This document shows, in pieces, positions 7,074-55,792 of a DNA stretch of 64,000 bases. The notes beneath the pieces were generated by a model. It searched no databases. It saw only the letters and a program-made list of their open reading frames with translations, and had not been told where the DNA came from. Each line of letters begins with the position of its first letter. Position 1 is the first letter of the stretch. The stretch lies in the NCBI RefSeq assembly GCF_019704555.1, contig NZ_AP024745.1, positions 7,076,501 through 7,140,500 of the forward strand. Direction: 5' to 3'. The stretch is from Actinoplanes sp. L3-i22 (lineage in GTDB: Bacteria; Actinomycetota; Actinomycetes; Mycobacteriales; Micromonosporaceae). The position numbers and the translations under genes are program-made.

Positions 7074-7127
7074 CTGCCCTCCTTCGTGAAGATGCCGTCA
7101 GCCTGTCGGGCGGCGGGGTGATCGAGC

Positions 7128-7146
7128 ATCGCTCGCGCCGGATGAA
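7128..7146. promoter_or_regulatory. Shared palindrome, bidirectional (MFS / ThrE)
   Basis: ATCGCTC-GCGCC-GGATGAA is a copy of YTCAYCC-N5-GGRTGAN with a weak left half. Rightward, TACGGT (7169-7174) follows after 22 bp and the ThrE ATG 7 bp later, giving a leaderless start. Leftward, CAGGCT (7100-7105) follows after 22 bp and leads to the MFS gene. Confidence 0.65.
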
Positions 7147-7181
7147 TCGCCGGGCCGCCCGCTCCGCCTACGGTCCTCGCC

Positions 7182-8414
7182 ATGGACGAGCAAGAGCTGC
7201 AGCAGTTCCTGCTCTATCTGGGCAGCGCGCTCACCGCGGCCGGGGAGGCCGTCAATCAGATCGAGGAACACCTGGTGAAGGTGGCGGCGGCCTACGGCGC
7301 GCCGCACGCCCGGGTCAGTGTCCTGCCGACGTACGTCGTGGTCTCGCTGGAGCCCGGGCGGCCGGCGACGCTGGAGCCGACCCGCCAGCTGCGCGGCGGG
7401 TTGCGGTTGGATCAGACCGCCGCGGTGTACGACGTCCTGCGCGTCGCCGAGCGCGGCGAGGTCACCCCGCGGGACGGCAGCGAGCAGGTGCTGGCGGCGG
7501 TGAACATGCCACCCCGGTTCAGCGCCGTGGTCCGGACCGCCGGGCACGCGGTGCTGATCGGCGGGATCTGCCTGATCCTCGCTCCGACCTGGGGGGACGT
7601 CCTGCTGGCCGTGCTGTTCGGGGTGGTGGTGGGGTTGATGCGGCTGTTCGGCGGGCGCTGGGCCAGCGCCCAGATGATCATGCCGGTGATCGCCGCGTTC
7701 ACCGTCTCCGCGGCGACGTTCGTGCTGGCCGGCACCGGCTGGGCGGACGCCGACCTGCGGGCCATGGTCGCGCCGCTGGTGACGTTCCTGCCGGGGGCGA
7801 TGCTGACGATGGGCGTCGTCGAGCTGTCCGCGTACGAGATGGTCACCGGCTCCAGTCGTCTGGTCGCCGGCGCCCTGCAGCTGCTGCTGCTGGCGTTCGG
7901 GATCATCGGTGCCGCCCACGTGGTCGGCGTGCCGACGCCGGCCGCCGCGGACCACGTCCCGAACACGATCGGCTGGTGGGCGCCCTGGCTGGGCCCGCTG
8001 GTCGTCGGGGTCGGCAACTACCTGCTGCTGGCCGGCCCACCGCGCTCACTGGGCTGGCTGCTGCTGGTGCTCTACGCCGGATGGATCAGCCAGTACCTGG
8101 GCAATCTGGTGCTCGGCGGCTATCTGAGCGGGTTCGTCGGCGCGCTGGTGCTGACGATCGTCGCGTACGAGGTGGAGCGGGTGCCCGGCGGGCCACCGGC
8201 GCTGGTCTCGTTCCTGCCCGGGTTCTGGCTGCTGGTGCCGGGCGCGCTGACGCTGATCGGGATGACCGAGTACCTCGGCCAGGACACCGTCCGCGGCGCC
8301 GAGGACCTGATCGGCGCGACCGCGTCGATGGTGTCGGTCGCGCTCGGCGTGCTGTGCGGGCATCCCCTGTTCCGGGCGGTGTCCCGGGTCGGCGAGAAGG
8401 CGGTGTCCCGGTGA
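7182..8414 (+). CDS. ThrE-family threonine/serine exporter-like protein (copy 1)
   Basis: The 410-residue protein has the N-terminal ThrE domain (DUF1212) with a soluble part to about residue 120, then about ten membrane segments including the C-terminal DUF3815-like half. The block FLPGAMLTMGVVELSAYEMV is characteristic. The family exports threonine and serine in Corynebacterium; substrate here is inferred. The start is leaderless: TACGGT lies 7 bp before ATG, with the shared palindrome 22 bp further up. The stop overlaps the first copy of a 26-bp repeat that separates this gene from its paralogue. Confidence 0.85.
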   Translation: MDEQELQQFLLYLGSALTAAGEAVNQIEEHLVKVAAAYGAPHARVSVLPTYVVVSLEPGRPATLEPTRQLRGGLRLDQTAAVYDVLRVAERGEVTPRDGSEQVLAAVNMPPRFSAVVRTAGHAVLIGGICLILAPTWGDVLLAVLFGVVVGLMRLFGGRWASAQMIMPVIAAFTVSAATFVLAGTGWADADLRAMVAPLVTFLPGAMLTMGVVELSAYEMVTGSSRLVAGALQLLLLAFGIIGAAHVVGVPTPAAADHVPNTIGWWAPWLGPLVVGVGNYLLLAGPPRSLGWLLLVLYAGWISQYLGNLVLGGYLSGFVGALVLTIVAYEVERVPGGPPALVSFLPGFWLLVPGALTLIGMTEYLGQDTVRGAEDLIGATASMVSVALGVLCGHPLFRAVSRVGEKAVSR

Positions 8415-8475
8415 CCGGCGAGCGGGCGGTGTCCCGGTGACCGGCGAGCGGGCGGTGTCCCGGTGACCGGCGAGA
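8401..8475 (+). repeat. 26-bp triplication of the ThrE1/ThrE2 stop-start junction
   Basis: The unit CGGTGTCCCGGTGACCGGCGAGCGGG starts at 8401, 8427 and 8453. Each copy holds a GTGA stop/start overlap. The first two GTG starts (8411 and 8437) open nine-codon frames (VTGERAVSR) that end in the next copy. Only the third GTG (8463) reads into the second ThrE gene. Because 26 is not a multiple of three, each added copy ends the frame opened in the previous one. Confidence 0.95.
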
Positions 8476-9671
8476 AGGAGTTGCTGGGGCTGCTCGGGCC
8501 GCTGACCGAGTGGCTGCTCGGCTCCAGCTTCGAGGGGACCGTGCGGTGCGAGGCGATCGTCGAGGACCTCGGCCGGCACTACGGCCACCACGTGGAGGCG
8601 ACGTTCCTGGCCGACGCGGCGCTGCTGACCGTGGGCGAGCGGACCCTGTCGTTCTCCCGGGCGCCCGGCGTGCCCCCGCTGCACCAGGTCACCCAGGTGA
8701 AGCAGCTCCTGCACCGGATCCATCGCGGCCTGCCGGCGGCGGCCGCCGCCGAGCGGCTGGCCGCGATCCGGGCGCTGCCGCCGCGCTGGTCGCGGCCGTG
8801 GCAGGTGCTCGGGCTGGTCGCGTTCACCGTCGGCTTCGGGATCTCGGTGCAGGCCACCTGGCAGCAGGTCGGGGTCTCCGCGCTGACCGGGCTGCTGATC
8901 GGGTTGCTGGTGGTGGCCGGCGGCGGGCACCGGCGACTGCTGCTGATCGAGCCGTTCGTGGCGTCCCTGCTGGTCTCGGTGGTGGTGCTGACGCTCGACC
9001 GGCACGGGGTGATCGCCGGCGGCCCGATCCAGCTGATCCTGCCGGCGCTGTTCTACTTCATCCCGGGTGACGCGATCAGCGCGGCCGCCCTGGAGCTGGC
9101 CGCGAACCGGATGACCGCGGGCGCCGCCCGGCTGGTCTACAGCACGGTGGTGCTGCTCGTGCTGGCGTTCGGCGCGCTGATGGCGACGGTGGTGCTGGGC
9201 GTGCCGCGCAGCGCGCTGTTCGACGTGAGCGTGCCCGGCAACCTGGGGCCGGTCGGCGTGTGGGGCGGCTGGGTGCTGTTCGCGCTCGGGGTGATGCTGA
9301 CGTTCTCGATGGCGTTGCGGGACTTCCCGTGGGCGCTCGGGCTGGTGCTGCTGACCGCGGCGGTGACCGAGGTGGGCACCCGGGCGCTGGGTGATCCGGC
9401 CGGGACGTTCCTGGGCGCGGTGGTGATGATGACGGTGGCGCTGTGGCTCGGGCGCCGGCCCGGGTCGCCGCCCGCCTACGTGCTGTACCTGGGCGCGTTC
9501 TACGTGCTGACGCCGGGTTCGCACGGGTTGCGCGGGCTGGAGAGCTGGATCGGCGGGCACCCGATCCAGGGCGTCGGCGGGGTGGCCGACATGGTGTCGC
9601 TCCTGGTCGCGATCGCGGTCGGGATGCTCGTCGGGGCCGCGGCGGCCGCCCGTTTCATCCGTACCGGATGA
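8463..9671 (+). CDS. ThrE-family threonine/serine exporter-like protein (copy 2)
   Basis: The 402-residue paralogue of the preceding gene has the same architecture: about 120 residues of soluble ThrE domain (with FHPGLP-like HRGLPAAAAAERL), then about ten TM helices and the block FYFIPGDAISAAALELAANR. Two adjacent copies may form a heteromer. GTG 8463 has no independent Shine-Dalgarno site, so translation probably depends on ribosomes ending the upstream gene and re-initiating through the repeated GTGA junction. Its last codons overlap the palindrome that serves the next gene. Confidence 0.85.
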   Translation: MTGEKELLGLLGPLTEWLLGSSFEGTVRCEAIVEDLGRHYGHHVEATFLADAALLTVGERTLSFSRAPGVPPLHQVTQVKQLLHRIHRGLPAAAAAERLAAIRALPPRWSRPWQVLGLVAFTVGFGISVQATWQQVGVSALTGLLIGLLVVAGGGHRRLLLIEPFVASLLVSVVVLTLDRHGVIAGGPIQLILPALFYFIPGDAISAAALELAANRMTAGAARLVYSTVVLLVLAFGALMATVVLGVPRSALFDVSVPGNLGPVGVWGGWVLFALGVMLTFSMALRDFPWALGLVLLTAAVTEVGTRALGDPAGTFLGAVVMMTVALWLGRRPGSPPAYVLYLGAFYVLTPGSHGLRGLESWIGGHPIQGVGGVADMVSLLVAIAVGMLVGAAAAARFIRTG

Positions 9672-9707: not shown

Positions 9708-10151
9708 ATGCAGAGCCGCAACCCGGTGCAACCGGTGCTCCTGATGTTTCCGCTCGGGCTGTTCGCGGTGGCGATCATCCTGGACCTGGGCACGTTGCTC
9801 GGGGCGCCCGCGATCATCGGCACCCTGGCCTACTGGAACATCGTCGCCGGGCTGTTCGGCGGGATCTTCGGCGTGGTGGTGGGCCGGCCGCGGGTGGTGA
9901 TCCTGCTGCTGGACATGGGGGTGCTGTTCTACTTCGCGACCCTGGCCCTGGTCCGGGTGCGTTCCGGGGACCGTCTGGCCGACCCCGGGCTGCTGCTGCT
10001 CGAGCTGCTCGGATTCGCCGCGGCGCTGACCGGTTCCTGGTTCGGCGGCCGCCTGGACCCGAACCATTCAGCAGGGATGAGACGCACCGCATCCAGATCA
10101 ACCGATGATTCCGCCGGACTCTCGACTACCCGAAGAAGGGGGGCGGCGTGA
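9708..10151 (+). CDS. DUF2231-like four-TM membrane protein
   Basis: The 147-residue protein has four hydrophobic helices in the first 115 residues, starting MQSRNPVQPVLLMFPLGLF, and a polar Arg/Ser-rich C terminus. The N-terminal block (HP/QPVLLMFPLGLF then YWNIVAGLFGG) resembles DUF2231, a family often found beside redox or stress genes. Function is unknown. The start is probably leaderless, with CACCGT 8 bp upstream. The stop overlaps the GTG of the next permease gene by 4 bp, so the two may be co-transcribed. Confidence 0.7.
   Translation: MQSRNPVQPVLLMFPLGLFAVAIILDLGTLLGAPAIIGTLAYWNIVAGLFGGIFGVVVGRPRVVILLLDMGVLFYFATLALVRVRSGDRLADPGLLLLELLGFAAALTGSWFGGRLDPNHSAGMRRTASRSTDDSAGLSTTRRRGAA
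10063..10081 (+). promoter_or_regulatory. Degenerate copy of the shared palindrome before the permease gene
   Basis: ACCATTC-AGCAG-GGATGAG has a perfect right half and a poor left half. GATGAT (10104-10109) follows after 22 bp. It lies inside the 3' coding part of the DUF2231 gene, 67 bp before the permease start. It is the weakest accepted copy. Confidence 0.35.
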
Positions 10152-18462: not shown

Positions 18463-18481
18463 CTCATCCCGCCGGAGTGAG
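18463..18481. promoter_or_regulatory. Shared palindrome, bidirectional (M48 operon / lipid kinase)
   Basis: CTCATCC-CGCCG-GAGTGAG. Rightward, GAGGCT (18503-18508) follows after exactly 21 bp, leaving an mRNA leader of about 50 nt before the kinase ATG. Leftward, GAAAGT (complement of 18436-18441) follows after 21 bp and leads to the M48 operon. Confidence 0.75.
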
Positions 18482-20516: not shown

Positions 20517-20535
20517 CTCATCCGGTGCGGGTGAG
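20517..20535. promoter_or_regulatory. Shared palindrome, bidirectional (DUF6325 / lipoprotein operon)
   Basis: CTCATCC-GGTGC-GGGTGAG is nearly perfect. Rightward, GACGCT (20557-20562) follows after 21 bp and ATG 20569 after 6 bp (leaderless). Leftward, CAGGAT (complement of 20489-20494) follows after 22 bp and leads to the DUF6325-like gene. Confidence 0.85.
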
Positions 20536-24200: not shown

Positions 24201-24219
24201 ATCATCCCGGCAGGGTGAG
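24201..24219. promoter_or_regulatory. Shared palindrome, bidirectional and leaderless both ways
   Basis: ATCATCC-CGGCA-GGGTGAG. Rightward, GACGCT (24241-24246) follows after 21 bp and ATG 24254 after 7 bp. Leftward, CACGCT (complement of 24174-24179) follows after 21 bp and ATG 24166 after 7 bp. It is the cleanest example of the shared architecture. Confidence 0.88.
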
Positions 24220-24745: not shown

Positions 24746-25475
24746 CCCGGGGCCGGTACGGGAGGGGGACGGTGATCAGGCGGCCGGTGCGCCAGCCGTC
24801 CGGCAGGAAGTGGCGTTCGGTGACGGTGACCATGCCCTCGGCGACGCTGATCCGGCTCCACGAGCTGGGCGTGCCGCGTGTGCGGCGGCTGGTCGACGTG
24901 CCGGCGACGACGACCACGGTGCCGTGCATCGTCCGTACGTCGGGATGGTGGGTGTGCCCGGCCAGCAGCAGGTCGGCGCCGGTCCGCAGGAGCCCGCGCC
25001 CGTTGATCAGCATCCGCCCGAAGGGCGGGTGGTGCAGCGCGACCAGCCGCAGGTCGCCGGCCGGCGCCGCGGCGAACGTGGTGGTGACCGCGGTCAGCTG
25101 GGCGCGCCGGACCAGGCCGTCCTTCCAGCGCCAGCGCGGCATCGACTGCAGGCCGGCGGCGGTCAGGCCGGGGACCCGGACGACCGGGTCGAGGTCGGCG
25201 GAGATCCAGGTGCGGTAGCGGTCGTAGGGGTGGAACAGCCGCTGGGGGCTGTCCAGCGGCAGGTCGTGGTTGCCGGTGACCACCAGCACCGGGGACGGCA
25301 GCCGGTCGAGGAACGCCCGGGCCAGCTGGAACTCGCCGGCCCGGGCGCGCATCGTGAGATCTCCGGTGACCACGGTCAGGTCGGGCGGCGCCGCGACCAC
25401 ATCGGCCACCAGGGACGCGGCCGCGTCCTCGTCGTGCACCCCGAAGTGCAGGTCCGACAGGTGAGCGATGTTCAC
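24726..25475 (-). CDS. Calcineurin-like metallophosphoesterase (last gene of the arginine operon)
   Basis: The 249-residue enzyme has the full motif set of soluble calcineurin phosphoesterases: HLSDLHFG, VVTGDLT, VVTGNHD, ALHHPPF and LLAGHTHHP. It resembles cAMP phosphodiesterase-type (CpdA/Icc) members, but the substrate is not proven. GTG 25475 overlaps the arcC stop (GTGA), so it is translationally coupled to carbamate kinase. This is an unexpected partner for arginine catabolism. Confidence 0.88.
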   Translation of the reverse strand: MNIAHLSDLHFGVHDEDAAASLVADVVAAPPDLTVVTGDLTMRARAGEFQLARAFLDRLPSPVLVVTGNHDLPLDSPQRLFHPYDRYRTWISADLDPVVRVPGLTAAGLQSMPRWRWKDGLVRRAQLTAVTTTFAAAPAGDLRLVALHHPPFGRMLINGRGLLRTGADLLLAGHTHHPDVRTMHGTVVVVAGTSTSRRTRGTPSSWSRISVAEGMVTVTERHFLPDGWRTGRLITVPLPYRPRVSAGGS

Positions 25476-26401
25476 CTGGCGAGATGGTAGTCCCCGGCCG
25501 GGGTGACGACCGTGCCCGCCTTGCCGGCCAGGATCGCGGCGGCCTCGTCGAGGGCGCCGATCGCGGCCAGGCCGCCGGTCAGCTCGACGAACCGGCAGAC
25601 CGCGTCCACCTTGGGGCCCATCGACCCGGCCGGGAACCGTTCCCGGCGCAGCTCGGCCGGGGTGGCCCGGGTGATCGGCGCCGGGGCCGGGCCGCCGAAG
25701 CCGCGCAGCACCGCCGGCACGTCGGTGAGCAGCAGCAGCGCGTCGGCGTCCAGCGACTCGGCGAGCACCGCGGTGGCCAGGTCCTTGTCGACGACGGCCT
25801 CGACGCCGCGCAGCCGGCCGTCCTCGTCGCGGACCACCGGGATGCCGCCGCCGCCGGCGCACACCACGACGGTCCGCTCGAACAGCAGGGACCGGATGAT
25901 CCGGGTCTCCACGATCCGCTGCGGCCGCGGGGACGGCACGACGCGCCGCCATCGGGTGCCGTCCTGGGCCACCTGCCAGCCGCGTTCCCCGGCGTACTGT
26001 CGCGCGGTCTTCTCGTCGTAGACCGGCCCGACGAACTTGGTGGGTTTGCCGAAGGCCGGGTCGGCGGCCGAGACCAGGGTCTGGTCGAGGATCGCCGCGA
26101 CCTGCCGGCCGGGCAGCGCGTTCTGCAACGCCTGCAGCAGCCAGTAGCCGATCATGCCCTGGGTCTGCGCGCCGAGCACGTCGAACGGGTACGGCATCCG
26201 CAGGCTGGCGTCCGCCGCCGACTGCAGCGCGAGCATCCCGACCTGCGGCCCGTTGCCGTGCGTGATGACCAGCTCGTGCTCGGCGGCGAGCGGCGCGAGC
26301 GCGTCGACGGCCCGGATCGCGTTGGCCCGCTGCACCTCGGCGTCCGGGCGCTGTCCGCGTTCGAGCAGCGCGTTGCCGCCGATCGCGACGACGATCCGCA
26401 T
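25472..26401 (-). CDS. arcC: Carbamate kinase
   Basis: The 309-residue protein carries the amino-acid-kinase fold motifs: MRIVVAIGGNALL at the N terminus, THGNGPQVG, the carbamate-kinase loop ALPGRQVAAILDQTLVSAADPAF, CAGGGGIPVV, VDKDLATAVLA and a C-terminal FPAGSMGPKVDA block. It makes ATP from carbamoyl phosphate in the last step of the arginine deiminase pathway. The ATG lies two bases before the argF stop is complete in the operon order (arcA, argF, arcC), and its stop overlaps the phosphoesterase start. Confidence 0.95.
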   Translation of the reverse strand: MRIVVAIGGNALLERGQRPDAEVQRANAIRAVDALAPLAAEHELVITHGNGPQVGMLALQSAADASLRMPYPFDVLGAQTQGMIGYWLLQALQNALPGRQVAAILDQTLVSAADPAFGKPTKFVGPVYDEKTARQYAGERGWQVAQDGTRWRRVVPSPRPQRIVETRIIRSLLFERTVVVCAGGGGIPVVRDEDGRLRGVEAVVDKDLATAVLAESLDADALLLLTDVPAVLRGFGGPAPAPITRATPAELRRERFPAGSMGPKVDAVCRFVELTGGLAAIGALDEAAAILAGKAGTVVTPAGDYHLAR

Positions 26402-26403
26402 CG

Positions 26404-27405
26404 TCAGACCCCCAGGGTGGCGACCATGATCGCCTTGATCGTGTGCATCCGGTTCTCGGCCTGGTCGAAGACGATCGAGTACGGCGACTCGAAGACGTCG
26501 TCGGTGATCTCCAGGGCGTCGAGTCCGGTGTGCTCGTAGATCTCCTCGCCGACCTTGGTGCGCCGGTCGTGGAAGGCCGGCAGGCAGTGCATCACCTTGA
26601 CCGCCGGGTTGGCCGCGGCGCGGACCACGTCGGCGTTGATCTGGTACGGCTTGAGCAGCCGGATCCGCTCGTCCCAGGCCTCCTTCGGCTCGCCCATCGA
26701 CAGCCACACGTCGGTGTAGAGGAAGTCCGCGCCGCGCACGCCGTCGCCGACGTCCTCGGTGTGGGTGATCCGGGCGCCGGTGGTCTCGGCGATCGCCTTC
26801 GCCGCCTTGATCACCTCGTCCGGGTTCCACCGCGACTCCGGGGCGACCATCCGCACGTCCATGCCCATCATCGCGCCGGCGATCAGCAGCGAGTTGCCCA
26901 TGTTGTTGTGCGCGTCGCCGAGGAACGCGAACGCCACCTCGTTGTCGTGCTTGACCGTGTGCTCGCGCATGGTGAGCAGGTCGCAGAGGGTCTGGGTGGG
27001 GTGCCACTCGTCGGTGAGCCCGTTCCAGACCGGGACGCCGGCGTACCGGGCCAGGGTCTCCACGCCCTCCTGGCCGAAGCCGCGGTACTCCAGCGCGTCG
27101 TAGAAGCGGCCGAGCACCCGCGCGGTGTCCTTGACCGACTCCTTGTGGCCGAGCTGGGTGCTGCCCGGGTCCAGGAACGTGACGTGCGCGCCCTGGTCGT
27201 GGGCGGCCACCTCGAACGCGCAGCGGGTGCGGGTCGAGGTCTTCTCGAAGATCAGCGCGATGTTGCGGCCGGTCAGCCGGGGCACCTCGGTGCCGGTGTA
27301 CTTGGCCGCCTTGAGCTGCGCGGCGAGCCGCAGCAGGAAGCGCCACTCGTCGGGGGTGAAGTCGAGTTCCTTGAGGAAGCTGCGGTTGCGCAGGTTCACT
27401 GACAC
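26404..27405 (-). CDS. argF: Ornithine carbamoyltransferase (catabolic, ADI operon)
   Basis: The 333-residue enzyme has the carbamoyl-phosphate loop STRTRCAFE (residues 57-65), [11 protein letters not shown], and the ornithine/catalytic block HCLPAFHD near the C terminus. Its place between arcA and arcC points to the catabolic direction (citrulline plus phosphate to ornithine plus carbamoyl phosphate), so it would be called arcB by role. GTG 27405 has AAGGAG 8 bp upstream. It follows arcA after 45 bp. Confidence 0.95.
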
Positions 27406-27450
27406 GTCAAAAGCTCCTTATCCGGTACGGGCGTGAAGGGCGCGACGAGC

Positions 27451-28671
27451 TCAGACGGCGTCGCGCTCGATCGGACAGGTCATGCAGCGCGGCCCGCCGC
27501 GGCCCCGGCCCAGTTCGCTGCCCGCGATGGTGATCACCTCGATGCCGTGCCGGCGCAGGTACGTGTTGGTGGTGACGTTGCGCTCGTAGCCGACGATCAC
27601 CCCGGGCTCGACGGCGAGGAAGTTGTTGCCGTCGTCCCACTGCTCGCGCTGGGCCGCCCGTACGTCCTCGTCGGTTTCCAAGATTTGGATCTTGTCGATC
27701 CCCAGGGTCTCGGCGATCGTGGCGAACAGGTCGTCGTTGCGGACCACGTCGAGCCCGTCCTCGTCGTCGCCGGGCCGCACGGTCCACGACCGCAGGGCGT
27801 CGTGCAGGTACGGGTACATCACGAAGGTGTCCCGGTCGATCATGGTCATCACCGTGTCGAGGTGCATCATGGCGTGCGAGTGCGGCAGCTCGATGGCGAT
27901 CACCTTGGTGGCGGCCCCGGCCAGGAACAGGTTGCGGGCCAGGTTCTCCACGCCCATCGGGGTGGACCGCTCGCCCAGCCCGATCATCACCGCGCCGTTG
28001 CCGAGCACGTGGATGTCGCCGCCCTCCAGGGTGGCCGGCTGGTGCGGCTTGTCGTCGGCGCCGTACCACATGTCGAAGTCGGCCATCGTGAACATCGGGT
28101 GGAAGCGGTAGATGGCCGAGCTGTGCACCGACTCGCGGTGCCGGGGCGCCATCGCCATCGGGTTGACGCTGACCCCGCCGTAGATCCAGGCCGAGTTGTC
28201 CCGCTGGAACAGGTGGTTGGGCAGCGGGGTGAGCACGAAGTCGTCGGCGCCCATCAGCTCCCAGCGCAGGCTGTTCACGGTGAAGCCGGCCAGCTCCTGC
28301 TTGAGCACGCCGCCGATCAGGTACTCGGCGAGCTTCCCGCTCTCGGCCTGCTCGGCGAGCCGGCGCAGCGGCCCGGCCAGGGTCGGCCCGACGGTGTCCT
28401 CGGTGATGATCCGGTCCAGGATCCAGGCCCGGGCGTGCGGGATGTCCAGCACGTCGGCCAGCAGCTCGGCGAAGTAGTGCACCTTGATCCCGCGTTCGCG
28501 CAGCACCTCGGCGAACGCGTCGTGCTCCTCGCGGGCCTTGCGCGCCCAGAGGATGTCGTCGAAGAGCAGGTCCCTGACGTTGTCCGGGGTGAGACGGCTG
28601 AGCTCGACACCGGGGCGGTGCAGGATCACCTGGCGCAGCCGGCCGGTCTCGGAGTCGACGTGGAATGGCAT
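27451..28671 (-). CDS. arcA: Arginine deiminase
   Basis: The 406-residue protein is a full-length arginine deiminase. The catalytic Cys396 lies in [13 protein letters not shown]; other family blocks are [37 protein letters not shown] and [18 protein letters not shown]. It converts arginine to citrulline and ammonia, giving ATP through carbamate kinase and raising pH. ATG 28671 has GGGAGAGCAC upstream. It sits between the antiporter gene and argF in one operon. Confidence 0.96.
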
Positions 28672-28684
28672 GTGCTCTCCCGGG

Positions 28685-36634: not shown

Positions 36635-36653
36635 TTCACCCCTGACGTGTGAG
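36635..36653 (+). promoter_or_regulatory. Shared palindrome (variant) of the third DUF7144 gene
   Basis: TTCACCC-CTGAC-GTGTGAG has one mismatch in the right half. Its centre is 44 bp before ATG 36688, as in the leaderless members, but the hexamer at the usual distance is TCTCCT and fits poorly. Confidence 0.5.
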
Positions 36654-36687: not shown

Positions 36688-37128
36688 ATGTCGAACAGTT
36701 ATGTGAGTGAACGTCCGGCCGGCGCCGACGCCCCGGCCCCGTCCGTCACCGGCTGGTCCGGTGTGGTGATCTTCGCCGGCATCATGATGTTGTGCCTGGG
36801 CGTGTTCCAGGTGACCGAGGGCGGAGTCGCCCTTTACCACGAGGAGTACTACCTGGTCACGTCGAGCGGCTCGCTGCTCCAGATGGACTACGCCGCCTGG
36901 GGCTGGACCCACCTGCTGTTCGGCCTGGTGTCGCTGGCCGCCGGCGCGGGGGTGCTGCTCGGCAAGCTGTGGGCCCGGATCATCGGCGTCCTGATCGCCT
37001 TCCTCGGCGCCCTGCTGCACTTCCTGTTCCTGGCCGCCGCCCCGGTGTGGTGCACGATACTGATCGGCATGGATGTGCTGATCATCACAGCGCTGTGCAC
37101 ACACGGCCGGGACGTCCGCCGCTCCTAG
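36688..37128 (+). CDS. DUF7144 four-TM membrane protein (copy 3)
   Basis: The 146-residue protein has all DUF7144 blocks: GVVIFAGIMMLCLGVFQVTEGGVAL, YAAWGWTHLLFG, GKLWARIIGV and ITALCTHGRDVRRS. It is closest to copies 1 and 4. ATG 36688 follows a regulon-type palindrome at the standard distance; a longer frame from 36649 would start inside that site. It is the only gene between the two large LuxR regulators, which suggests a link with them. Confidence 0.85.
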   Translation: MSNSYVSERPAGADAPAPSVTGWSGVVIFAGIMMLCLGVFQVTEGGVALYHEEYYLVTSSGSLLQMDYAAWGWTHLLFGLVSLAAGAGVLLGKLWARIIGVLIAFLGALLHFLFLAAAPVWCTILIGMDVLIITALCTHGRDVRRS

Positions 37129-37139: not shown

Positions 37140-39749
37140 CTAGATCAGATTGAGGGCCCGCGCCCGGCGCACCGCCTCGTTGCGCCGGGACGCGGACAGC
37201 TTGCGCAGGATGCTGCGGACGTGCGTCTTGACGGTGTTGACCGAGACGTACATCGAGGCGGCGATCTCCTCGGTGGGCAGCATCTCGGACATCCCGCGCA
37301 GCACGTCCAGCTCGCGCTTGCTGAGCGCCTCGACCACGACCGGGTCGGTGACCGGCTGGTGCTGGCCCCCGCCCAGCGCGGCCAGCTTCTCGTCGTCGCG
37401 CAACACCCGGCGCAGCGCGCCCCACGCCTGGTGCACCGGCCGCCGCAGGTGCTCCGGCCCGGCCACCCGCAGACCCCGGCGCAGCGCCTCCCGCGCGCCG
37501 GCCGCGTCGTCCGAACCGGCCGCCAGCATCGCCAGCAGCAGCCACGCGTCCAGGGCCACCGGCGCCGCCACCCCTGCGGCGTCGGCGACCGTCCGGGCGA
37601 CCTCGTGCGCCCGGTGCGGCTCACCCCGGGCGAAGGCCAGCGCGGCGTCCAGCATGGCCACGTCGGCCGGGTACGGCATCGGCTGATCGGCGAGCACCAC
37701 GGCGGCCTCCTCCGCCCGGCCCGCGCCGATCAGCAGCCGGGCCCGGCCCAGGTCGATCTCCCGGCGCAGCCACGGTGGCGCGTGCGGGATCGGCGCGAGG
37801 GCGTTCAGCGCGCCGCGCAGCTCGCCGCGCACCTGCAGGCGGCGGGAGCGCACGACGGCGTAGGCGGCGACCGCGAGCGGGTCCTCGCTGAGCTGGGCGC
37901 CGCGCAGATGCCGGTCGGCCGTCTCGATGTCGTAGCGCTCCAGGGCCACCCAGGCCAGCACCACCTCGGCCGCCACCGGCCGGTGCGCCCGGTCGAGACC
38001 GCACTGCCCGGCCAGGTCGAGCGCCTGCCGCGCCGCGCTCTCCGCGCGGGTCAGCCGGCCCCGGTACGCCTCCAGCACCGCGATCGTCCGCAGACAGTCC
38101 ATGGTGAGCGTCTCGCACCCGGCCGGGGCCGCCGCCACGGCCCCGGTGAGCGTCTCCACCGCGCCCTCGACGTCGCCGCACGCACTGCGCGCGGCCCCCT
38201 CGGCGGCCAGCAGCAGCGCCCGCAGCTCGGGGTGCCGGGCCAGCTTCCGGCCCGGCGCCACCGCCAGGAACGCGTGCGCCACCGGCGCCAGCTCCTGGGC
38301 CCGCTCCGGCTCGGGGCCGCCGGCCAGCAGCAGCAGTTGCAGCAGGAAACAGGAGAGGGTCAGCCCCTCGCCGCAGTCGCTGCCCTGGATCGCCAGCAGG
38401 TTCCCGGAGAGCGCGAACAGCTCGCGGGCCTCGTCGACGCGGCCGTCGCCGTAGGCCAGCGCGGCCCGGACCATCACCACCTCGGGCAGGTCCAGGTGGT
38501 CCGGCAGCCCACCGAGCAGTCCTCCGAGCCGCCCGGCGCTGCCCTCGACGATCAGTCGCCCGATCGCGAAGTCCTCGACCACCATGGCCGCGGCGGTCGC
38601 CCAGTCCCCGGCGATCACGGCGTGGCCGACCGCGTCGTTGAGCCGGCCGTGCTCCGACAGCCAGCGTGCGGCCCGCTGGTGCAGCATCGCCACGTGCTCC
38701 GGCTCGGCCCAGGCCAGCTGGGCGCGCAGCAGCTCGGCGAACAGGCGGTGGTAACGGAACAGGTCGGCGCCGTCGCCGACCGGCTGGATGAACGCGTTCT
38801 CCCTGGTCAACGCGGCGAGCATGCGGGCCGCGTCGGGCCGGGCGGTGACCGCCGCGGCGAGGTCGGCGGAGAACGTGTCCAGCACGCTGGTCTCCAGCAG
38901 GAACCGCCGGATCGCCGGCGGCTGGGTGCGCAGCACCTCGCCGATGAAGTACTCGGCGATCGTCGACTCGTCACCGGAGATCGTGGTGACCATCCGCGTC
39001 ACGTCCGCGCTGCCCTGCATCGCGCAGGCGCAGAGCCGGATCCCGGCCGCCCAGCCCTCGGTCCGGTCGAGCAGCGCGGCCACCTCCGGCCCGGCCAGCG
39101 GCACGCCGTGCAGCTCCATCAGCCGGGCCGTCTCGTCGGCGGTGAACGCCAGGTCGGCGGTGCGCACCTCACGCAACTGGCCGGCCAGCCGGTAGCGGTA
39201 GAGCGGCAGCGGCGGATCCCAGCGGCCGGTCAGGATCACCCGCAGGCCGTCCGAGTGCGCCAGCAGGAACTCCAGCCCGGCCGCCCACTCCCGGCCGGGC
39301 AGCTGGGCCGCGCCGTCCAGGATCAGGACGACCGGGGTGCGTTGCTGGTCGATGATCGCCGCGAGCCGGGCGAGGACCGCCCGGCTCGCGGCGGCGCCGG
39401 GAACGGCCGGTTCCGGGGCCGGCACGCCGGCGCGGCGCAGGCCCTCCAGAACGTACGACCACAGGGTGGCCGCCGGTTCGTCCCCGTTCTCGCAGGTGAC
39501 CCACGCTATCGGCCAGTCCACCGGCCGAGCGCGCACCCACGAGGCCAGCAGCTGCGTCTTTCCGCTGCCGGCCAGCCCGGTCACCAGGGTGACCGGGCCG
39601 CGGACGCCCTCACTCAGCCGGGTCAGCAGGGCCGGCCGCGCCACCATGAACGGCGGAGCGGCCGGAACCGCGAACTTCGAGGCGAGCAGGGAACCGTCCG
39701 CGTCGCAATCAGATATGCCAGGTGAGTCAGCGATCAGTTCGATGGACAC
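37140..39749 (-). CDS. MalT-type (LAL) LuxR family transcriptional regulator 2
   Basis: The 869-residue protein has the same plan as the first regulator: ATPase domain with Walker A TGLAGSGKT (about residues 57-65), VVLILDGA, a long helical repeat region, and a C-terminal LuxR HTH (LSKRELDVLRGMSEMLPTEEIAASMYVSVNTVKTHVRSILRKL). The two recognition-helix regions (SVNTVKxHxRSIxRKL) are very similar, so they may recognise related DNA. GTG 39749 has GGAGG 9 bp upstream. A 16-codon upstream frame overlaps the start. The gene converges with the third DUF7144 gene. Confidence 0.88.
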   Translation of the reverse strand: MSIELIADSPGISDCDADGSLLASKFAVPAAPPFMVARPALLTRLSEGVRGPVTLVTGLAGSGKTQLLASWVRARPVDWPIAWVTCENGDEPAATLWSYVLEGLRRAGVPAPEPAVPGAAASRAVLARLAAIIDQQRTPVVLILDGAAQLPGREWAAGLEFLLAHSDGLRVILTGRWDPPLPLYRYRLAGQLREVRTADLAFTADETARLMELHGVPLAGPEVAALLDRTEGWAAGIRLCACAMQGSADVTRMVTTISGDESTIAEYFIGEVLRTQPPAIRRFLLETSVLDTFSADLAAAVTARPDAARMLAALTRENAFIQPVGDGADLFRYHRLFAELLRAQLAWAEPEHVAMLHQRAARWLSEHGRLNDAVGHAVIAGDWATAAAMVVEDFAIGRLIVEGSAGRLGGLLGGLPDHLDLPEVVMVRAALAYGDGRVDEARELFALSGNLLAIQGSDCGEGLTLSCFLLQLLLLAGGPEPERAQELAPVAHAFLAVAPGRKLARHPELRALLLAAEGAARSACGDVEGAVETLTGAVAAAPAGCETLTMDCLRTIAVLEAYRGRLTRAESAARQALDLAGQCGLDRAHRPVAAEVVLAWVALERYDIETADRHLRGAQLSEDPLAVAAYAVVRSRRLQVRGELRGALNALAPIPHAPPWLRREIDLGRARLLIGAGRAEEAAVVLADQPMPYPADVAMLDAALAFARGEPHRAHEVARTVADAAGVAAPVALDAWLLLAMLAAGSDDAAGAREALRRGLRVAGPEHLRRPVHQAWGALRRVLRDDEKLAALGGGQHQPVTDPVVVEALSKRELDVLRGMSEMLPTEEIAASMYVSVNTVKTHVRSILRKLSASRRNEAVRRARALNLI

Positions 39750-39777: not shown

Positions 39778-39863
39778 TTCGATCTCCTCGTTCAGACTCC
39801 CGGCACTAGCACCCCCGCGCATCGTCCGGATCGGATAATCCATAACCTTCAGTATCGAGAACG

Positions 39864-41207
39864 TCACCCGATGGAGAGGACATGCGTTCCCCAGGGCGGC
39901 AGGTCGACATACAGCCCCGAATCGGCCAAATCGGCGCCGGATCGCTCGAAGACCCGGCCGTCGAGCCGGTCGGTCAGCCGCCGGTCCCCGTGGCGCGGCC
40001 CGGTCCAGGGCATCTCGACCCGCCCCTGCACCGGGTGGTCCGAGAAATTGATCACCACGACGGCCGAGTCCCAGGCCCAGGCGAGCAGATCCTGATGGGA
40101 CTGGTTGTCCGGCCAGCCCGTGGTGTTCAGCAGCCGCCACGTGCCCTGCCGCACCTGCTCGGCGGCGGCCACCAGCCGGCGGTAGAAGGCACGCAGCTCG
40201 AGATCGGCCGGCTCCTGCGGGAACCGGGCCAGCTGGACCGCCAGCCGGATGTGCCGCCCCTCGAACTGCCCGTCGTGCCACAGCGTCGCGCCGGGCAGCG
40301 TGGCGATCGCCACCGCCGCGGCCCGGGCCCGCCCGGCCGGGAACGTCGCGGCGGCCCGCGGCTCGTCGTGGTTCTCCAGGAAGCGGATCAGCTTGTCCTG
40401 GTACTCCAGCCCGGCGCCGAGGTGCTTGCGGATCGACCCGGCGTCCTCGTGCACCAGCCGGTCGTAGAGCCGTTTGTCGTAGCAGTGGTCGAAGCCCTGG
40501 CTCTGCAGCAGCCACTCGGTCTCCCAGTAGGCCTCGGCGACCAGCACCACGTCCGGGTGCCGCTCGCGCAGCCGCCCGATCACCAGCGGCCAGAACTCCT
40601 CCGCCGGCGGCGGGCCGGCCGAGTCGCCCCAGGTCCGCGCGAAGATCTCGTTGATCATCAGCATTGCCATGTCGCAGCGGATCCCGTCGCACTGCTCGGC
40701 GATCCCGGACAGCGCGGCCACCGTGGCGTCCCGCATCCCCGGCGCGAACGCGTTCAGCTGCAGCACGTCCGGCCACGGCGGGAAGTACGGGTCACGGCCG
40801 TGCGCGATCACCCCGTGCTCGTGGACGAACCACTCCGGATGCTCGGTCACCGCCGGATGGTCCGGGGCCACGTGGTTGGGCACGTAGTCCAGGAACAGCC
40901 GCACGCCCCGGCTGCGCAGCTGCTCGCGGGCCCGGGCCAGGCCCTCCGGCCCGCCGAGCCGCTCGTCGACCCGGTAGCCCCGCACGCAGTAGGGCGAGCC
41001 GGAGATCTCCTCCGGTGGCGTCTCCGGGGACCGGTCGCGGAAGATCGCGGTCCCGGCCGGGCTGCGCTCCCAGACGCCCATCAGCCAGACCGCGTCCACC
41101 CCGGGCGCGGCCACCTCGTCCCAGACCTCGTCGGGCACCTCGCCCAGCGTGACGCCCAGCCCGGCCAGCCAGGGCCAGGCGTTGATCTCGTAGATGACCG
41201 GTCCCAT
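39864..41207 (-). CDS. GH13 alpha-amylase family glycosidase
   Basis: The 447-residue enzyme has the GH13 catalytic set: LFLDYVPNHV, GIRCDMAML with nucleophile Asp179, VLVAEAYW with acid/base Glu225 and FLENHDEPR with His280-Asp281. It is shorter than most secreted amylases and has no signal peptide, so it acts in the cytosol, probably on glycogen-, maltose- or trehalose-type glucosides. The ATG overlaps the stop of the upstream glucosidase (TGATG), and GGGGAGG lies upstream. Confidence 0.9.
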   Translation of the reverse strand: MGPVIYEINAWPWLAGLGVTLGEVPDEVWDEVAAPGVDAVWLMGVWERSPAGTAIFRDRSPETPPEEISGSPYCVRGYRVDERLGGPEGLARAREQLRSRGVRLFLDYVPNHVAPDHPAVTEHPEWFVHEHGVIAHGRDPYFPPWPDVLQLNAFAPGMRDATVAALSGIAEQCDGIRCDMAMLMINEIFARTWGDSAGPPPAEEFWPLVIGRLRERHPDVVLVAEAYWETEWLLQSQGFDHCYDKRLYDRLVHEDAGSIRKHLGAGLEYQDKLIRFLENHDEPRAAATFPAGRARAAAVAIATLPGATLWHDGQFEGRHIRLAVQLARFPQEPADLELRAFYRRLVAAAEQVRQGTWRLLNTTGWPDNQSHQDLLAWAWDSAVVVINFSDHPVQGRVEMPWTGPRHGDRRLTDRLDGRVFERSGADLADSGLYVDLPPWGTHVLSIG

Positions 41208-43825: not shown

Positions 43826-45478
43826 TCAGCCGGCATCCTCCCGCAGGGCTGAAACCGCGTCCCCGACCGTCGGGTAGAAGTGCGCCGGATCGATCGTGCC
43901 GGTCAGCTGGTACCGGTCCACCTTGGCCCGCACCGGCGTCTTCATCCCGGCGAAGACCAGCGAGATCCCGGCCGCGTTCAGCTCCTCGTCGAGGTCCTTG
44001 AGCATGTCCGCGGCGGTGGTGTCCACGTCGGTGATCGGCTCGGCGGCGATCACGATGAACCGCGGCGGCGCCGGGGCGTGCGCGAGCACGCGTACCTCGT
44101 CGCGGAACGTCCGGGCGTTCGCGAAGATCAGCGGCGCGTCGAACCGGAACACCACGATGCCCGGCACCTGTTCGGCGTCCGGGAAGACCTGCAGGTCGTG
44201 GTAGCCGTTGACGCCGGCCGGGCGGCCCAGCACGGTCCGGTACGGCCACCAGGTGCGCCGGAACACGTTGAGCACGGACAGGCTGACCGCGACCGCGATG
44301 CCGGCCAGCACGCCGGCCACCGCGACCCCGGCGAAGGCCGCCACCGCCAGGGCGAACTCCATCCGCCGCTGCCGCCACAGCCGCCGCATGCCGGCCACGT
44401 CGGCCAGCGACAGCGACGCGGCGATCACCACCGCGGCCAGGATCGGCTGCGGCAGGTTCCGCAGCAGATCCGGCGCGACGACCAGCAGCAGGGTGATCGC
44501 CGCCGCGCCGACCAGCCCGGTCAGCTGGCTGCGCGCCCCGGCCTGGAACGCGACCGCGGTCCGGGAGCCGCTGGTGCTGACCGGGAAGCCCTGGAAGAGC
44601 CCGGCCGCGAGGTTCGCCGCGCCGATGCCGAGCATCTCCCGGTTGCCGCGCAGCTCCTGCCCGGTCCGGGCGGCGAAGGCGGACGCCGTGGAGATCGTGT
44701 CGGTGACCGACACCAGCGTGATGCCCAGCGCGCCGATCGCGAGCGGCCCCAGCACGTCCCAGCCCACCGCCGGCAGCGTGAACGGCGGAAGACCCGGCGG
44801 CAGGGCGCCGACGACGTGGACGTCCAGATCGAACGCCGGCACCGCGACGGTCGCGCCGACCACGACGAGCAGAATGCCCGGGACCTTCGGGAACCAGTGC
44901 CGCAGCAGCAGGATCACCAGCAGCCCACCGGCGCCGATCGCCAGCGCGGCCGGCACGGTCTCCCCGGCGGCGACCCCGCGGGCGAACCCGGCGGCCTCGG
45001 CGAACAGCCCGTCGCCGTCCACCGAGAACCCGAACAGCTTGGGCAGCTGCCCGACCAGGATGGTCAGCGCCAGCCCGTTGAGGTAGCCCAGCTGGGTGGG
45101 GTGCGACAGCAGGTCGGCGACGAAGCCGAGCTTGGCGACCGCGGCGATGGTCATCATCGCCCCGGTCATCAGGGCCAGCGTCGACGCCAGCGCGACCGGG
45201 TCGTGGCCCCGCGCGACGATCGGCAGGAGCACCGCGGCGATCATCGGGCCGAGCGACGAGTCCGGGCCCAGGACCAGCACCTTCGACGGGCCGATCAGCG
45301 CGTAGGCGACCAGGCAGAGGATCGTGGTGTAGAGCCCGGTGATCGCGGGCAGCCCGGCCAGCTCGGCGTAGGCCATGCCCTGCGGGACCAGCAGCGTGGT
45401 CAGCACCAGCCCGGCGAGCAGATCCCGGCCGGGACGGGTGACGCCGCCCGGCCAGGCCGGGCGGCGTCGACTCGTCAT
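43826..45478 (-). CDS. SulP/SLC26 family anion transporter with STAS domain
   Basis: The 550-residue protein has the SulP transport domain with about 12-14 TM segments (LLVPQGMAYAELAGLPAITGLY is the family signature; GPDSSLGPMIAAV follows) and a C-terminal STAS domain from about residue 430 (GIVVFRFDAPLIFANARTF, DVDTTAADML). It moves sulfate, bicarbonate or another anion. ATG 45478 lies 10 bp after the DUF1269 stop; no clear Shine-Dalgarno site is seen, so the start is less certain. The last codons contain the promoter site of the glucosidase operon. Confidence 0.9.
   Translation of the reverse strand: MTSRRRPAWPGGVTRPGRDLLAGLVLTTLLVPQGMAYAELAGLPAITGLYTTILCLVAYALIGPSKVLVLGPDSSLGPMIAAVLLPIVARGHDPVALASTLALMTGAMMTIAAVAKLGFVADLLSHPTQLGYLNGLALTILVGQLPKLFGFSVDGDGLFAEAAGFARGVAAGETVPAALAIGAGGLLVILLLRHWFPKVPGILLVVVGATVAVPAFDLDVHVVGALPPGLPPFTLPAVGWDVLGPLAIGALGITLVSVTDTISTASAFAARTGQELRGNREMLGIGAANLAAGLFQGFPVSTSGSRTAVAFQAGARSQLTGLVGAAAITLLLVVAPDLLRNLPQPILAAVVIAASLSLADVAGMRRLWRQRRMEFALAVAAFAGVAVAGVLAGIAVAVSLSVLNVFRRTWWPYRTVLGRPAGVNGYHDLQVFPDAEQVPGIVVFRFDAPLIFANARTFRDEVRVLAHAPAPPRFIVIAAEPITDVDTTAADMLKDLDEELNAAGISLVFAGMKTPVRAKVDRYQLTGTIDPAHFYPTVGDAVSALREDAG
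43835..43853 (-). promoter_or_regulatory. Degenerate shared palindrome of the glucosidase-amylase operon
   Basis: On the minus strand TTCAGCC-CTGCG-GGAGGAT. GAGCCT (complement of 43808-43813) follows after exactly 21 bp and ATG 43801 after 6 bp. Two half-site mismatches, but the spacing is identical to the best sites. It lies inside the 3' end of the SulP gene. Confidence 0.6.
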
Positions 45479-46037: not shown

Positions 46038-46056
46038 CTCATTCCACGCGGATGAC
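46038..46056 (-). promoter_or_regulatory. Shared palindrome of the DUF1269-SulP operon
   Basis: CTCATTC-CACGC-GGATGAC. On the minus strand GACTAT (complement of 46009-46014) follows after 23 bp, with a short leader to the DUF1269 ATG. Confidence 0.65.
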
Positions 46057-46111: not shown

Positions 46112-46130
46112 TTCATCCCCGGCGGGCGAT
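46112..46130 (+). promoter_or_regulatory. Shared palindrome of the 46-48 kb operon
   Basis: TTCATCC-CCGGC-GGGCGAT. GAAGAT (46152-46157) follows after exactly 21 bp, then a leader of about 30 nt with GGGAG before ATG 46195. Together with 46038 it forms a divergent pair with one site per direction. Confidence 0.65.
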
Positions 46131-49966: not shown

Positions 49967-49985
49967 GTCACCCGGCGCGGATGAG
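49967..49985 (-). promoter_or_regulatory. Shared palindrome of the 483-residue membrane protein gene
   Basis: GTCACCC-GGCGC-GGATGAG. On the minus strand CACTGT (complement of 49939-49944) follows after 22 bp, with a leader of about 30 nt to the GGGGGAG site and ATG 49899. Confidence 0.7.
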
Positions 49986-50014: not shown

Positions 50015-50033
50015 TTCACCCCCGGTGGATGAG
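50015..50033 (+). promoter_or_regulatory. Shared palindrome of the DUF6325-SHOCT operon
   Basis: TTCACCC-CCGGT-GGATGAG is nearly perfect. CAGGCT (50055-50060) follows after exactly 21 bp and ATG 50067 after 6 bp, a leaderless start. Confidence 0.87.
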
Positions 50034-51586: not shown

Positions 51587-51596
51587 CATGTCGATG

Positions 51597-51679: not shown

Positions 51680-52114
51680 TCATCCCTCCCGGATGACCGC
51701 TCCCTCCCGGACGACCGCGGTCATGGCGATCTTGTCGGGCAGGCCCTGGTGCCGGCGGTCGACGATCAGCCACAGCGCGCCGACCGGGAAATACGCCAGC
51801 AGCAGCGCCCGCACCAGCGCGGCGAGCCACCGCACCGGCCCGCCGTCGGCGCGGACCACCCGGACGCCGACCACGGCCATCCCCGGCGTCCGCCCGGCCA
51901 GCACCCAGAACAGCGCGCAGTACACCGCGAGCAGCGCGGGCAGCACCACCAGATAGGACGAGAGGATCAGCCGGGCCAGCTCCCGGGCCTCGTGGCCGAC
52001 GACCGAGGCGACCAGCCCGAAGGCGGTCGCCCCGGCCGCGGCGAGCACCGCGACGGTGAGAGTGTCGATCAGGTACGCCAAGGTCCGGCTGACCAGCCCG
52101 GCGTACCCGCTCAT
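51680..52114 (-). CDS. RDD family membrane protein
   Basis: The 144-residue protein has three or four TM helices and the RDD pattern: LVSRTLAYLIDTLTVAVLAA at the N terminus and LAGRTPGMAVVGVRVVRADG in the middle (Arg in place of one canonical Asp). The family is linked to ion or solute transport but not well defined. Its ATG overlaps the stop of the preceding gene (ATGA). It is the last gene of the P-type ATPase operon. Confidence 0.87.
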   Translation of the reverse strand: MSGYAGLVSRTLAYLIDTLTVAVLAAAGATAFGLVASVVGHEARELARLILSSYLVVLPALLAVYCALFWVLAGRTPGMAVVGVRVVRADGGPVRWLAALVRALLLAYFPVGALWLIVDRRHQGLPDKIAMTAVVREGAVIREG

Positions 52115-55214: not shown

Positions 55215-55221
55215 CGGGCGC

Positions 55222-55710
55222 CTACCGGTACTGGGGCGGGTAGGGGCGCGACGACGCCGGCCGGGTGTCGACGCGGACCAGGCGGGTCGCCGACCGGGCC
55301 ACCCCGGCGATCAGCGAGCCGATCGCGATCCCGATGATCATGTTCAGCCCGGACGTGTAGAACTGGGCTGCCCGCTCCGCGTCGGTGACGAACGGCGCGA
55401 GCATCGCCGAGACCGTGGCCAGCCCGATCACCCAGCCGAAGAAGCGCATCGGCCGTGGTGTGGTCAGGATCAGCACGTGCACCAGGCCGGTGGCGAGCAG
55501 GGCGGCGAGGGCGGCGCCGAGCGCGTACCAGCCGGTGCTGGCGTCCCCCCAGGTCCCCTGGCCCTTGGGGGCGAGGACGTCGATGTCGAAGATCCCGCGC
55601 CCGAGCAGGATCCCGGCGACGGCGATCAGCGCGGCGACGGCCGCGGTCGCGCCGCCCCCGGCCCACAGTTTGCCGGCGTTGACGGTGGGTTTCACAGATT
55701 CGGTGGTCAT
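55222..55710 (-). CDS. DUF6069 family four-TM membrane protein
   Basis: The 162-residue protein begins MTTESVKPTVNAGKLWAGG and has four TM helices with the blocks APKGQGTWGDASTGWYALGAALAALLATGLVHVLIL and RPMRFFGWVIGLATVSAMLAPF, as in DUF6069. Function unknown. GAGGAG lies 6 bp before ATG 55710. It is the first gene of the ATPase operon, driven by the palindrome at 55774. Confidence 0.82.
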   Translation of the reverse strand: MTTESVKPTVNAGKLWAGGGATAAVAALIAVAGILLGRGIFDIDVLAPKGQGTWGDASTGWYALGAALAALLATGLVHVLILTTPRPMRFFGWVIGLATVSAMLAPFVTDAERAAQFYTSGLNMIIGIAIGSLIAGVARSATRLVRVDTRPASSRPYPPQYR

Positions 55711-55773
55711 CCGGTTCTCCTCGGTCGCACGGGAGGTGCCGCGCTGAGAATCGCCGGGGGCGGCGGTTGCCGC

Positions 55774-55792
55774 CTCATCCAGCCGGGATGAG
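55774..55792 (-). promoter_or_regulatory. Shared palindrome of the P-type ATPase operon
   Basis: CTCATCC-AGCCG-GGATGAG has both half-sites perfect. On the minus strand GATTCT (complement of 55747-55752) follows after exactly 21 bp, with a leader of about 30 nt containing GAGGAG. Confidence 0.87.

What the first reader, a model, noticed from the sequence alone, without database searches (positions are those of the whole stretch)
7100..55792. A single 19-bp palindrome with fixed promoter spacing controls most of a 49-kb region
YTCAYCC-N5-GGRTGAN occurs at 16 accepted positions (7128, 9654, 10063, 18463, 20517, 24201, 30940, 32822, 32884, 36635, 43835, 46038, 46112, 49967, 50015, 55774). In 18 promoter arms checked by hand, a hexamer with A at position 2 and T at position 6 follows after 21-23 bp; most follow after exactly 21. 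Typical hexamers are CAGGCT, GACGCT, CACGCT, GACGAT. In the leaderless members the start codon comes 6-8 bp later, so the palindrome centre lies near -43, as for a class II activator. The genes look like a dormancy/stress regulon, but the site does not resemble the mycobacterial DosR box (TTSGGGACTWWAGTCCCSAA).
Basis: partly seen in the sequence, partly recalled or inferred. Interest (0 to 1): 0.96.

Follow-up and report, generated by a model that had tools for sequence, protein, structure and literature searches.

The report
Known MalT-type regulon in Actinoplanes
A short DNA palindrome repeated across this Actinoplanes region matches, in sequence, promoter position and neighbouring genes, a gene switch already published for a related strain, where a MalT-like protein turns the genes on; here it likely works the same way, and the same layout also appears in other actinobacterial families.

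Summary
TCAYCC-N5-GGRTGA occurs 16 times (at most 1 mismatch) in the window and 0 times in 400 kb of flanks and controls; a NANNNT hexamer follows after 22-23 bp in 16 of 32 arms. It is not new. Droste et al. 2020 (PMC7567727) describe the same motif at the same promoter position in Actinoplanes sp. SE50/110, in a region activated by MalT (ACSP50_3915). The window is that region's counterpart, and its 37140-39647 gene stands at MalT's place. The class II activator idea is supported by their mapped starts; the dormancy idea is not. Added here: among 67 Actinoplanes genomes, sites go with MalT-type genes and persist in six genomes without a counterpart of the second regulator. The same 6-5-6 operator with the same -10 spacing also occurs in five other actinobacterial families, in part beside MalT-type genes and upstream of recurring small-protein families (DUF7144, DUF6325, PLDc_N-SHOCT). 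Against that wider reading, some genomes have a MalT-type gene but no site. No binding assay was found in the papers seen.

The parts
37140..39647 (-). LAL2: MalT-like LuxR-family activator (835 aa, NTPase plus GerE HTH), counterpart of ACSP50_3915 (MalT)
   Evidence: Pfam GerE/AAA; residues 2-349 match the solved E. coli MalT 8bob, E 2.8e-31; 82.7% identical to its counterpart in G022, whose gene order fits Table 1 of PMC7567727
33783..36410 (-). LAL1: second MalT-like LuxR-family regulator (875 aa), counterpart of ACSP50_3917
   Evidence: Pfam GerE, TPR_MalT below cut-off; 69% identical in G022; no counterpart in 6 genomes that keep sites
7129..7145 (.). weak operator (2 mismatches), divergent: hexamers both ways; start codon of the 7182 gene at centre +45
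9655..9671 (.). operator, exact; -10 hexamer CACCGT 9694-9699 (+)
10064..10080 (.). weak operator (2 mismatches), hexamer GATGAT (+) before the amino acid permease 10202
18464..18480 (.). operator (1 mismatch), divergent; hexamers 18503-18508 (+) and 18436-18441 (-)
20518..20534 (.). operator, exact, divergent; hexamers 20557-20562 (+) and 20489-20494 (-)
24202..24218 (.). operator, exact, divergent; hexamers 24241-24246 (+) and 24174-24179 (-)
30941..30957 (.). operator, exact; hexamer GACGAT 30913-30918 (-), before the GATase-APC-ADI-OTC-CK-PDE genes
32823..32839 (.). operator (1 mismatch); hexamer CAGGCT 32795-32800 (-)
32885..32901 (.). operator (1 mismatch); hexamer GAGATT 32924-32929 (+)
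36636..36652 (.). operator (1 mismatch) between LAL1 and the DUF7144 gene 36688; start codon at centre +44, no NANNNT at 22-23
39822..39838 (.). weak operator (2 mismatches) 175 bp before LAL2, hexamer GAGTCT (-): possible autoregulation
39864..39880 (.). weak operator (2 mismatches) before LAL2, hexamer GATTAT (-)
43836..43852 (.). weak operator (2 mismatches), hexamer GAGCCT (-), before the glycoside hydrolase gene 41207-43750
   Evidence: G022 has a 1-mismatch site before its counterpart
46039..46055 (.). operator (1 mismatch); hexamer only at 24 bp (-)
46113..46129 (.). operator (1 mismatch); hexamer GAAGAT 46152-46157 (+)
49968..49984 (.). operator, exact; hexamer CACTGT 49939-49944 (-)
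50016..50032 (.). operator, exact; hexamer CAGGCT 50055-50060 (+) before DUF6325
51680..51696 (.). exact palindrome without a hexamer at 22-23 bp; role unclear
55775..55791 (.). operator, exact; hexamer GATTCT 55747-55752 (-) before the DUF6069 to cation-ATPase genes
25472..30882 (-). target genes: GATase, amino acid permease, arginine deiminase, ornithine carbamoyltransferase, carbamate kinase (counterparts of ACSP50_3919-3923)
   Evidence: PMC7567727 Table 1
36688..37128 (+). DUF7144 protein; others at 15786-16241(-), 20986-21399(+), 46398-46814(+)

Best explanation
This region is the counterpart of the published MalT-activated region (MRLGR) of Actinoplanes sp. SE50/110, and its palindromes are likely the binding sites of the MalT-like LuxR-family protein encoded at 37140-39647, which would switch on the promoters beside them. 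Shown here: the sites, their fixed distance to a -10-like hexamer, their concentration in the window, the match to the published gene order, and the joint occurrence of sites and MalT-type genes across the genus. Published for SE50/110: start sites 34.4 +/- 1.0 nt from the motif end, loss of expression on malT deletion, gain on overexpression. Inferred: that 37140-39647 is the binder in this species, that a dimer sits on the palindrome and touches RNA polymerase from about -42 (class II), that divergent sites serve both genes, and that several transcripts are leaderless. The trigger (maltose in SE50/110) is untested here and the purpose of the gene set is unknown.
For: PMC7567727: same motif in 17 sequences out of 23 genes with a mapped start, same promoter position, malT deletion lowers 42 of 51 genes (32 by microarray, the rest by RT-qPCR) and overexpression raises 39. 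G022, an unnamed single-contig genome of 9,240,166 bp, is largely colinear with the window and carries the Table 1 genes in the published order, with LAL2 at the place of 3915 and LAL1 at that of 3917. Window enrichment. Spacing: 12 and 4 of 32 window arms; 57 and 33 of 165 arms in 32 other Actinoplanes stretches, mean 2.83 and largest 8 at other offsets. Only spacer 5 is enriched: 9 in the window and 83 in the 32 stretches, 0 at spacer 4 (the stretches were chosen around sites or LAL genes). Genus: of 67 genomes, 47 with a strong LAL2-type hit have 4-26 exact sites (median 12), 3 with a weak hit 0-3, 17 with none 0-4 (median 1); strong against the other 20, p 7e-11. Six genomes without a LAL1 counterpart keep 4-12 sites. 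The recognition-helix stretch is unchanged or nearly so in the 8 LAL2-type proteins compared.
Against: No binding assay: none of six assay words occurs in the main text of PMC7567727. Both regulators fall below NCBIfam's MalT equivalog cut-off (226 and 236 against 537 bits), LAL1 slightly above LAL2, whereas the paper found 3915 closer to E. coli MalT. Joint occurrence over the genus partly reflects presence or absence of the whole region. In three of the six LAL1-less genomes the LAL2-type protein is only 38-40% identical to LAL2, and in the other three a further distant LAL is present. 3 of 16 window sites lack the hexamer; 14 of 51 outside sites have one. Gene starts come from a home-made caller. 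Maltose dependence was not testable.
Confidence: 0.9

Rival explanations
1. LAL1 (33783-36410, counterpart of ACSP50_3917), alone or as a mixed dimer with LAL2, reads the palindromes.
For: It is a LAL of the same kind, lies next to site 36636, shares much of the recognition helix and scores slightly higher on the MalT model.
Against: Six genomes without a LAL1 counterpart (best LAL1 hit at most 37% identical) keep the sites; in SE50/110 deletion of 3917 is reported, as unpublished data, to have only slight effects.
Confidence: 0.07
2. A DosR/OsdR-like hypoxia or dormancy response regulator controls the region.
For: An Rv1733c-family protein, a P-type cation ATPase and the arginine deiminase genes.
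Against: Different consensus, no universal stress proteins or receiver-domain regulator among the scanned window proteins, published maltose and malT dependence in SE50/110.
Confidence: 0.02
3. A BldM-type orphan response regulator binds the sites; its Group I site has the same TCACCC half.
For: BldM Group I consensus TCACcCgnncGgGTGA (PMC4125116).
Against: That site has a 4-base spacer; spacer 4 occurs 0 times and spacer 5 occurs 9 times in the window. The same 0 against 83 in genus stretches and 0 against 31 in other genera is weaker evidence, because those stretches were chosen with spacer-5 sites in view.
Confidence: 0.02

Closest known systems
[quoted passage not shown] SE50/110 (PMC7567727)
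   Same: Same palindrome, same distance to the promoter, two MalT-like regulators with one gene between them, the Table 1 genes in the same order.
   Different: Another genome (12.0 Mb). The SulP transporter (43826-45406), the phosphodiesterase/holin-domain gene (30941-32788), the DUF2927 gene (13437-14177) and a second ThrE copy have no counterpart in the G022 stretch compared. Expression and maltose dependence not tested.
E. coli MalT and its box GGGGA(T/G)GAGG
   Same: Half-site GGATGA and position overlapping -35 (as quoted in PMC7567727); the NTPase part aligns to MalT 8bob.
   Different: Inverted pair with a 5-base spacer; no classical mal operon recognised among the scanned window proteins (two glycosidase-like genes at 39864-43750); below the MalT equivalog cut-off.
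BldM Group I sites of Streptomyces (PMC4125116)
   Same: TCACCC/GGGTGA half-sites.
   Different: Spacer 4 instead of 5; response regulator instead of LAL.
OsdR/DevR (DosR) dormancy regulon (PMC5069765)
   Same: A regulon gathered around its regulator; Rv1733c-family and P-type ATPase genes (that these belong to the mycobacterial regulon, and that OsdR/DevR share the GerE HTH class, is recalled).
   Different: Operator, regulator type and gene content.

Membership tests
MalT regulon (MRLGR) of Actinoplanes | Palindrome TCATCC-N5-GGATGA upstream of many genes of the region | tested here: met
   16 sites with at most 1 mismatch, 9 exact (with Y/R at the variable base)
MalT regulon (MRLGR) of Actinoplanes | Fixed position overlapping -35 | tested here: met
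   -10-like hexamer 22-23 bp after the site in 16 of 32 arms; published starts at 34.4 nt
MalT regulon (MRLGR) of Actinoplanes | malT and a second LAL gene inside the region, same gene order | tested here: met
   largely colinear with G022 and in the order of Table 1 of PMC7567727
MalT regulon (MRLGR) of Actinoplanes | Expression depends on MalT and on maltose | not testable with these tools
   needs mutants and RNA data in this species
E. coli-type MalT (equivalog) | NCBIfam NF003420 score at or above 537 bits | tested here: not met
   226 and 236 bits
E. coli-type MalT (equivalog) | Activates mal genes | not tested
   not so in SE50/110
DosR/OsdR dormancy regulon | DevR/OsdR-type palindrome | tested here: not met
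   consensus AGGGCCGATCGGCCCT differs from the sites found; the window was not scanned for that consensus
DosR/OsdR dormancy regulon | Universal stress proteins and a two-component regulator nearby | tested here: not met
   none among 53 of 57 called proteins in the window; flanks not scanned
BldM Group I site | TCACCC and GGGTGA separated by 4 bases | tested here: not met
   0 spacer-4 sites in the window

The most novel reading that the evidence does not exclude
The Actinoplanes region is one clustered case of a phylum-wide kind of regulon: MalT-type LAL activators that read a 6-5-6 palindrome set exactly 22-23 bp before the -10 and switch on a recurring set of small proteins (DUF7144, DUF6325, PLDc_N-SHOCT, DUF308) and alkyl sulfatases in at least six actinobacterial families, scattered over the genome in some and gathered in one island in Actinoplanes.
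Probability: 0.55. Interest if true: 0.6.

Novelty: already known. Interest (0 to 1): 0.4.

Why it matters
The regulon and its switch are published, so the finding as given is not a discovery. What would matter is the wider pattern: the same operator, spacing and regulator class with overlapping targets in other actinobacterial families would turn an oddity of an acarbose producer into a general regulon that can be tested in laboratory streptomycetes, and would give a functional handle on DUF7144, DUF6325 and the PLDc_N-SHOCT proteins.

Tried and rejected
Rejected: a dormancy (DosR/OsdR) box; BldM, because of the 4-base spacer; LAL1 as the main reader, because six genomes lack a counterpart. 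Weak or led nowhere: sites outside the window, some with good geometry but most without; G351 (same order), four exact palindromes with no hexamer at 21-24 bp and no LAL2 hit at E 1e-30 (a weaker LAL1-like match lies 4 kb from one of them), is probably another regulator; papers PMC11205660 and PMC11767292 have 'malt' only in maltose and the like in the passages shown. Some matches in the phylum scan look like coding sequence. Left unexplained: exact palindrome 51680 without a promoter hexamer.

Literature searches behind the statement that the wider pattern was not found in print: (open-licence PubMed Central only), seen as capped listings with the first lines of abstracts; one search returned none. 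Six papers were opened. PMC7567727: abstract, sections 13 and 15, part 1 of 2 of section 14, and passages; PMC4125116: abstract and passages; PMC5069765, PMC11205506, PMC11205660, PMC11767292: passages.

Full report
What was checked. The window is G000:C1:7076501-7140500 of a single 12,014,766-base contig. The core TCAYCC-N5-GGRTGA occurs 16 times with at most one mismatch in the window and not once in 200 kb of flanks or 200 kb of control stretches. On the whole genome 11 exact cores exist, 9 of them in the window's 0.53% of the sequence.

Promoter geometry. Counting from the last A of the site, a NANNNT hexamer begins after 22 bases in 12 and after 23 in 4 of 32 window arms, mean 0.48 at other offsets. 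In 32 other Actinoplanes stretches it is 57 and 33 of 165 arms, mean 2.83 and largest 8 elsewhere. The palindrome with a 22-base gap and hexamer is found exactly 7 times in the genome, all in the window; the reversed control gave 0. The 51 outside sites come from 48 stretches cut around the places listed; that call listed most but not all of its 103 strand hits and used an 18-mer, so the outside set is incomplete. Genes were called with a simple codon model, so 'inside' is approximate.

What it is. Droste et al. 2020 (PMC7567727; [quoted passage not shown] SE50/110, ACSP50_3900-3950, with the palindrome TCATCC-5nt-GGATGA in 17 sequences out of 23 genes with mapped starts, 34.4 +/- 1.0 nt from the start and overlapping -35. 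Deleting malT (ACSP50_3915) lowered 42 of 51 genes (40 in the abstract), overexpression raised 39, deletion of the second LAL gene 3917 had slight effects (stated as unpublished), and no gene of maltose metabolism responds. They note the region, in part, and the motif in four other Micromonosporaceae. None of six binding-assay words occurs in the text.

The window is that region. Whether G022 is SE50/110 itself is not shown by a call. LAL2 (37140-39647) is thus the counterpart of 3915 and LAL1 (33783-36410) that of 3917. Relative to the G022 stretch the window has, among others, a SulP transporter, a phosphodiesterase/holin-domain gene with an operator before it (32823), a DUF2927 gene and a second ThrE copy; G022 also has genes that the window lacks.

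Which regulator. Among 67 genus genomes, 47 with a strong LAL2-type hit have 4-26 sites, 3 with weak hits 0-3 and 17 without a hit 0-4. Six genomes (G072, G074, G079, G041, G002, G077) have a LAL2-type protein but no LAL1 counterpart, judged by identity from the tables (best LAL1 hit at most 37%), and keep 4-12 sites; in G041, G002 and G077 the LAL2-type protein is itself only 38-40% identical to LAL2, and G072, G074 and G079 have a further distant LAL. The recognition-helix stretch is unchanged or nearly so in the 8 LAL2-type proteins compared. Two weak operators with hexamers precede LAL2 itself, so autoregulation is possible. Neither protein passes NCBIfam's MalT equivalog threshold: 'MalT' is a likeness of NTPase and box, not proven orthology to the E. 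coli sensor.

Beyond the published family. In 396 genomes of the phylum, 145 have an exact 18-mer and 75 the core with the hexamer at 22-23 bases (204 matches by my addition of the table, reversed control 17). The spacing was therefore tested on fetched stretches: 43 exact sites from G024 of family f2 (8 stretches) and from 8 genomes in 20 stretches (f1 genus g18, f8, f18, f20, f23), picked by their sites, give 15 and 20 of 86 arms at 22 and 23 bases, mean 1.72 and largest 5 elsewhere. In G024, two of 12 sites lie about 0.6 kb upstream of two of its three LAL matches. LAL homologues lie in 6 of the 20 other stretches and in 0 of 20 flank or control stretches of the window's genome, a loose control because the genomes differ. 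By whole genome, 15 of 18 site-rich against 3 of 15 site-free genomes (33 that I chose from the table; other site-rich ones were left out) have a LAL2 hit at E 1e-30 or better (p 0.0004). In 7 of those 15 a listed site lies within about 5 kb of the LAL match (G130, G163, G234, G295, G408, G447, G475; read off).

Results against the wider reading. Among nine same-order genomes, G039, of the same family as G024, has a LAL match (E 2e-78) and no site; G035 and G038 likewise (E about 1e-46). Three site-rich genomes (G175, G243, G351) have no LAL2 hit at E 1e-30. Half-sites differ: TCATCC leads in the Actinoplanes stretches (99 of 166) and in G024 (15 of 24), TCACCC in the other genera (49 of 62), so more than one LAL or another GerE-type regulator may be involved.

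Targets outside the genus. Of 20 proteins after such promoters in eight genomes and 5 in G024: DUF7144 (G130, G295), DUF6325 (G163), PLDc_N, mostly with SHOCT (G024, G130, G295, G392, G234), alkyl sulfatases (G024 twice, G295), DUF308 (G234), DUF2267 (G408, G273), and singly BON, SCP2, LapA, DUF389, DUF1254/1214, SpoIIAA-like, PNPOx, Abhydrolase_9 and DUF2252; two of the 20 matched no family. Not every downstream gene was scanned (two of 24 arms had no called gene). DUF7144, DUF6325 and DUF308 also occur in the window, and DUF308 after a site in another Actinoplanes. This is the part I did not find in print.

Limits. No expression, binding or start-site data were available for this species. 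The out-of-family set was picked by its sites, so counts of sites there are not unbiased; the hexamer offset and the neighbouring genes do not depend on that choice.

Noticed in passing
window 23630-24205 (-): Rv1733c-family protein directly behind a divergent operator (24202), a link to a mycobacterial dormancy antigen (that Rv1733c is a DosR antigen is recalled).
   Followed up: partly
G000:C1:4227800 and 4229686 (L102): Two one-mismatch sites 1.9 kb apart, each with a hexamer at 22 bp and a start codon 43 or 35 bp downstream, before an alpha/beta hydrolase and a trehalase-like GH15 protein: possible regulon members outside the island.
   Followed up: partly
G000:C1:4834060 (L105) and 4566922 (L104): One-mismatch sites with hexamers before a phosphoketolase and a sodium/proton exchanger.
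   Followed up: partly
window 55798-59780: A 4-kb stretch with mostly poor coding scores inside a 1650-aa open frame without Pfam match; its end (59782-60750) carries the SCO7613 C-terminal domain.
   Followed up: no
window 17342-17566 (-), 46195-46401 (+); L155:4617-4862, L142:12291-12506: Four proteins of 68-81 aa near these operators in several genera with no Pfam match; the first three share a Y-x-(V/I)-R-V-x-G start, the fourth only loosely. Possibly one unnamed family.
   Followed up: no
L145-L147 (G351): Four exact palindromes without promoter hexamer and no LAL2 hit at E 1e-30: probably a different regulator.
   Followed up: partly
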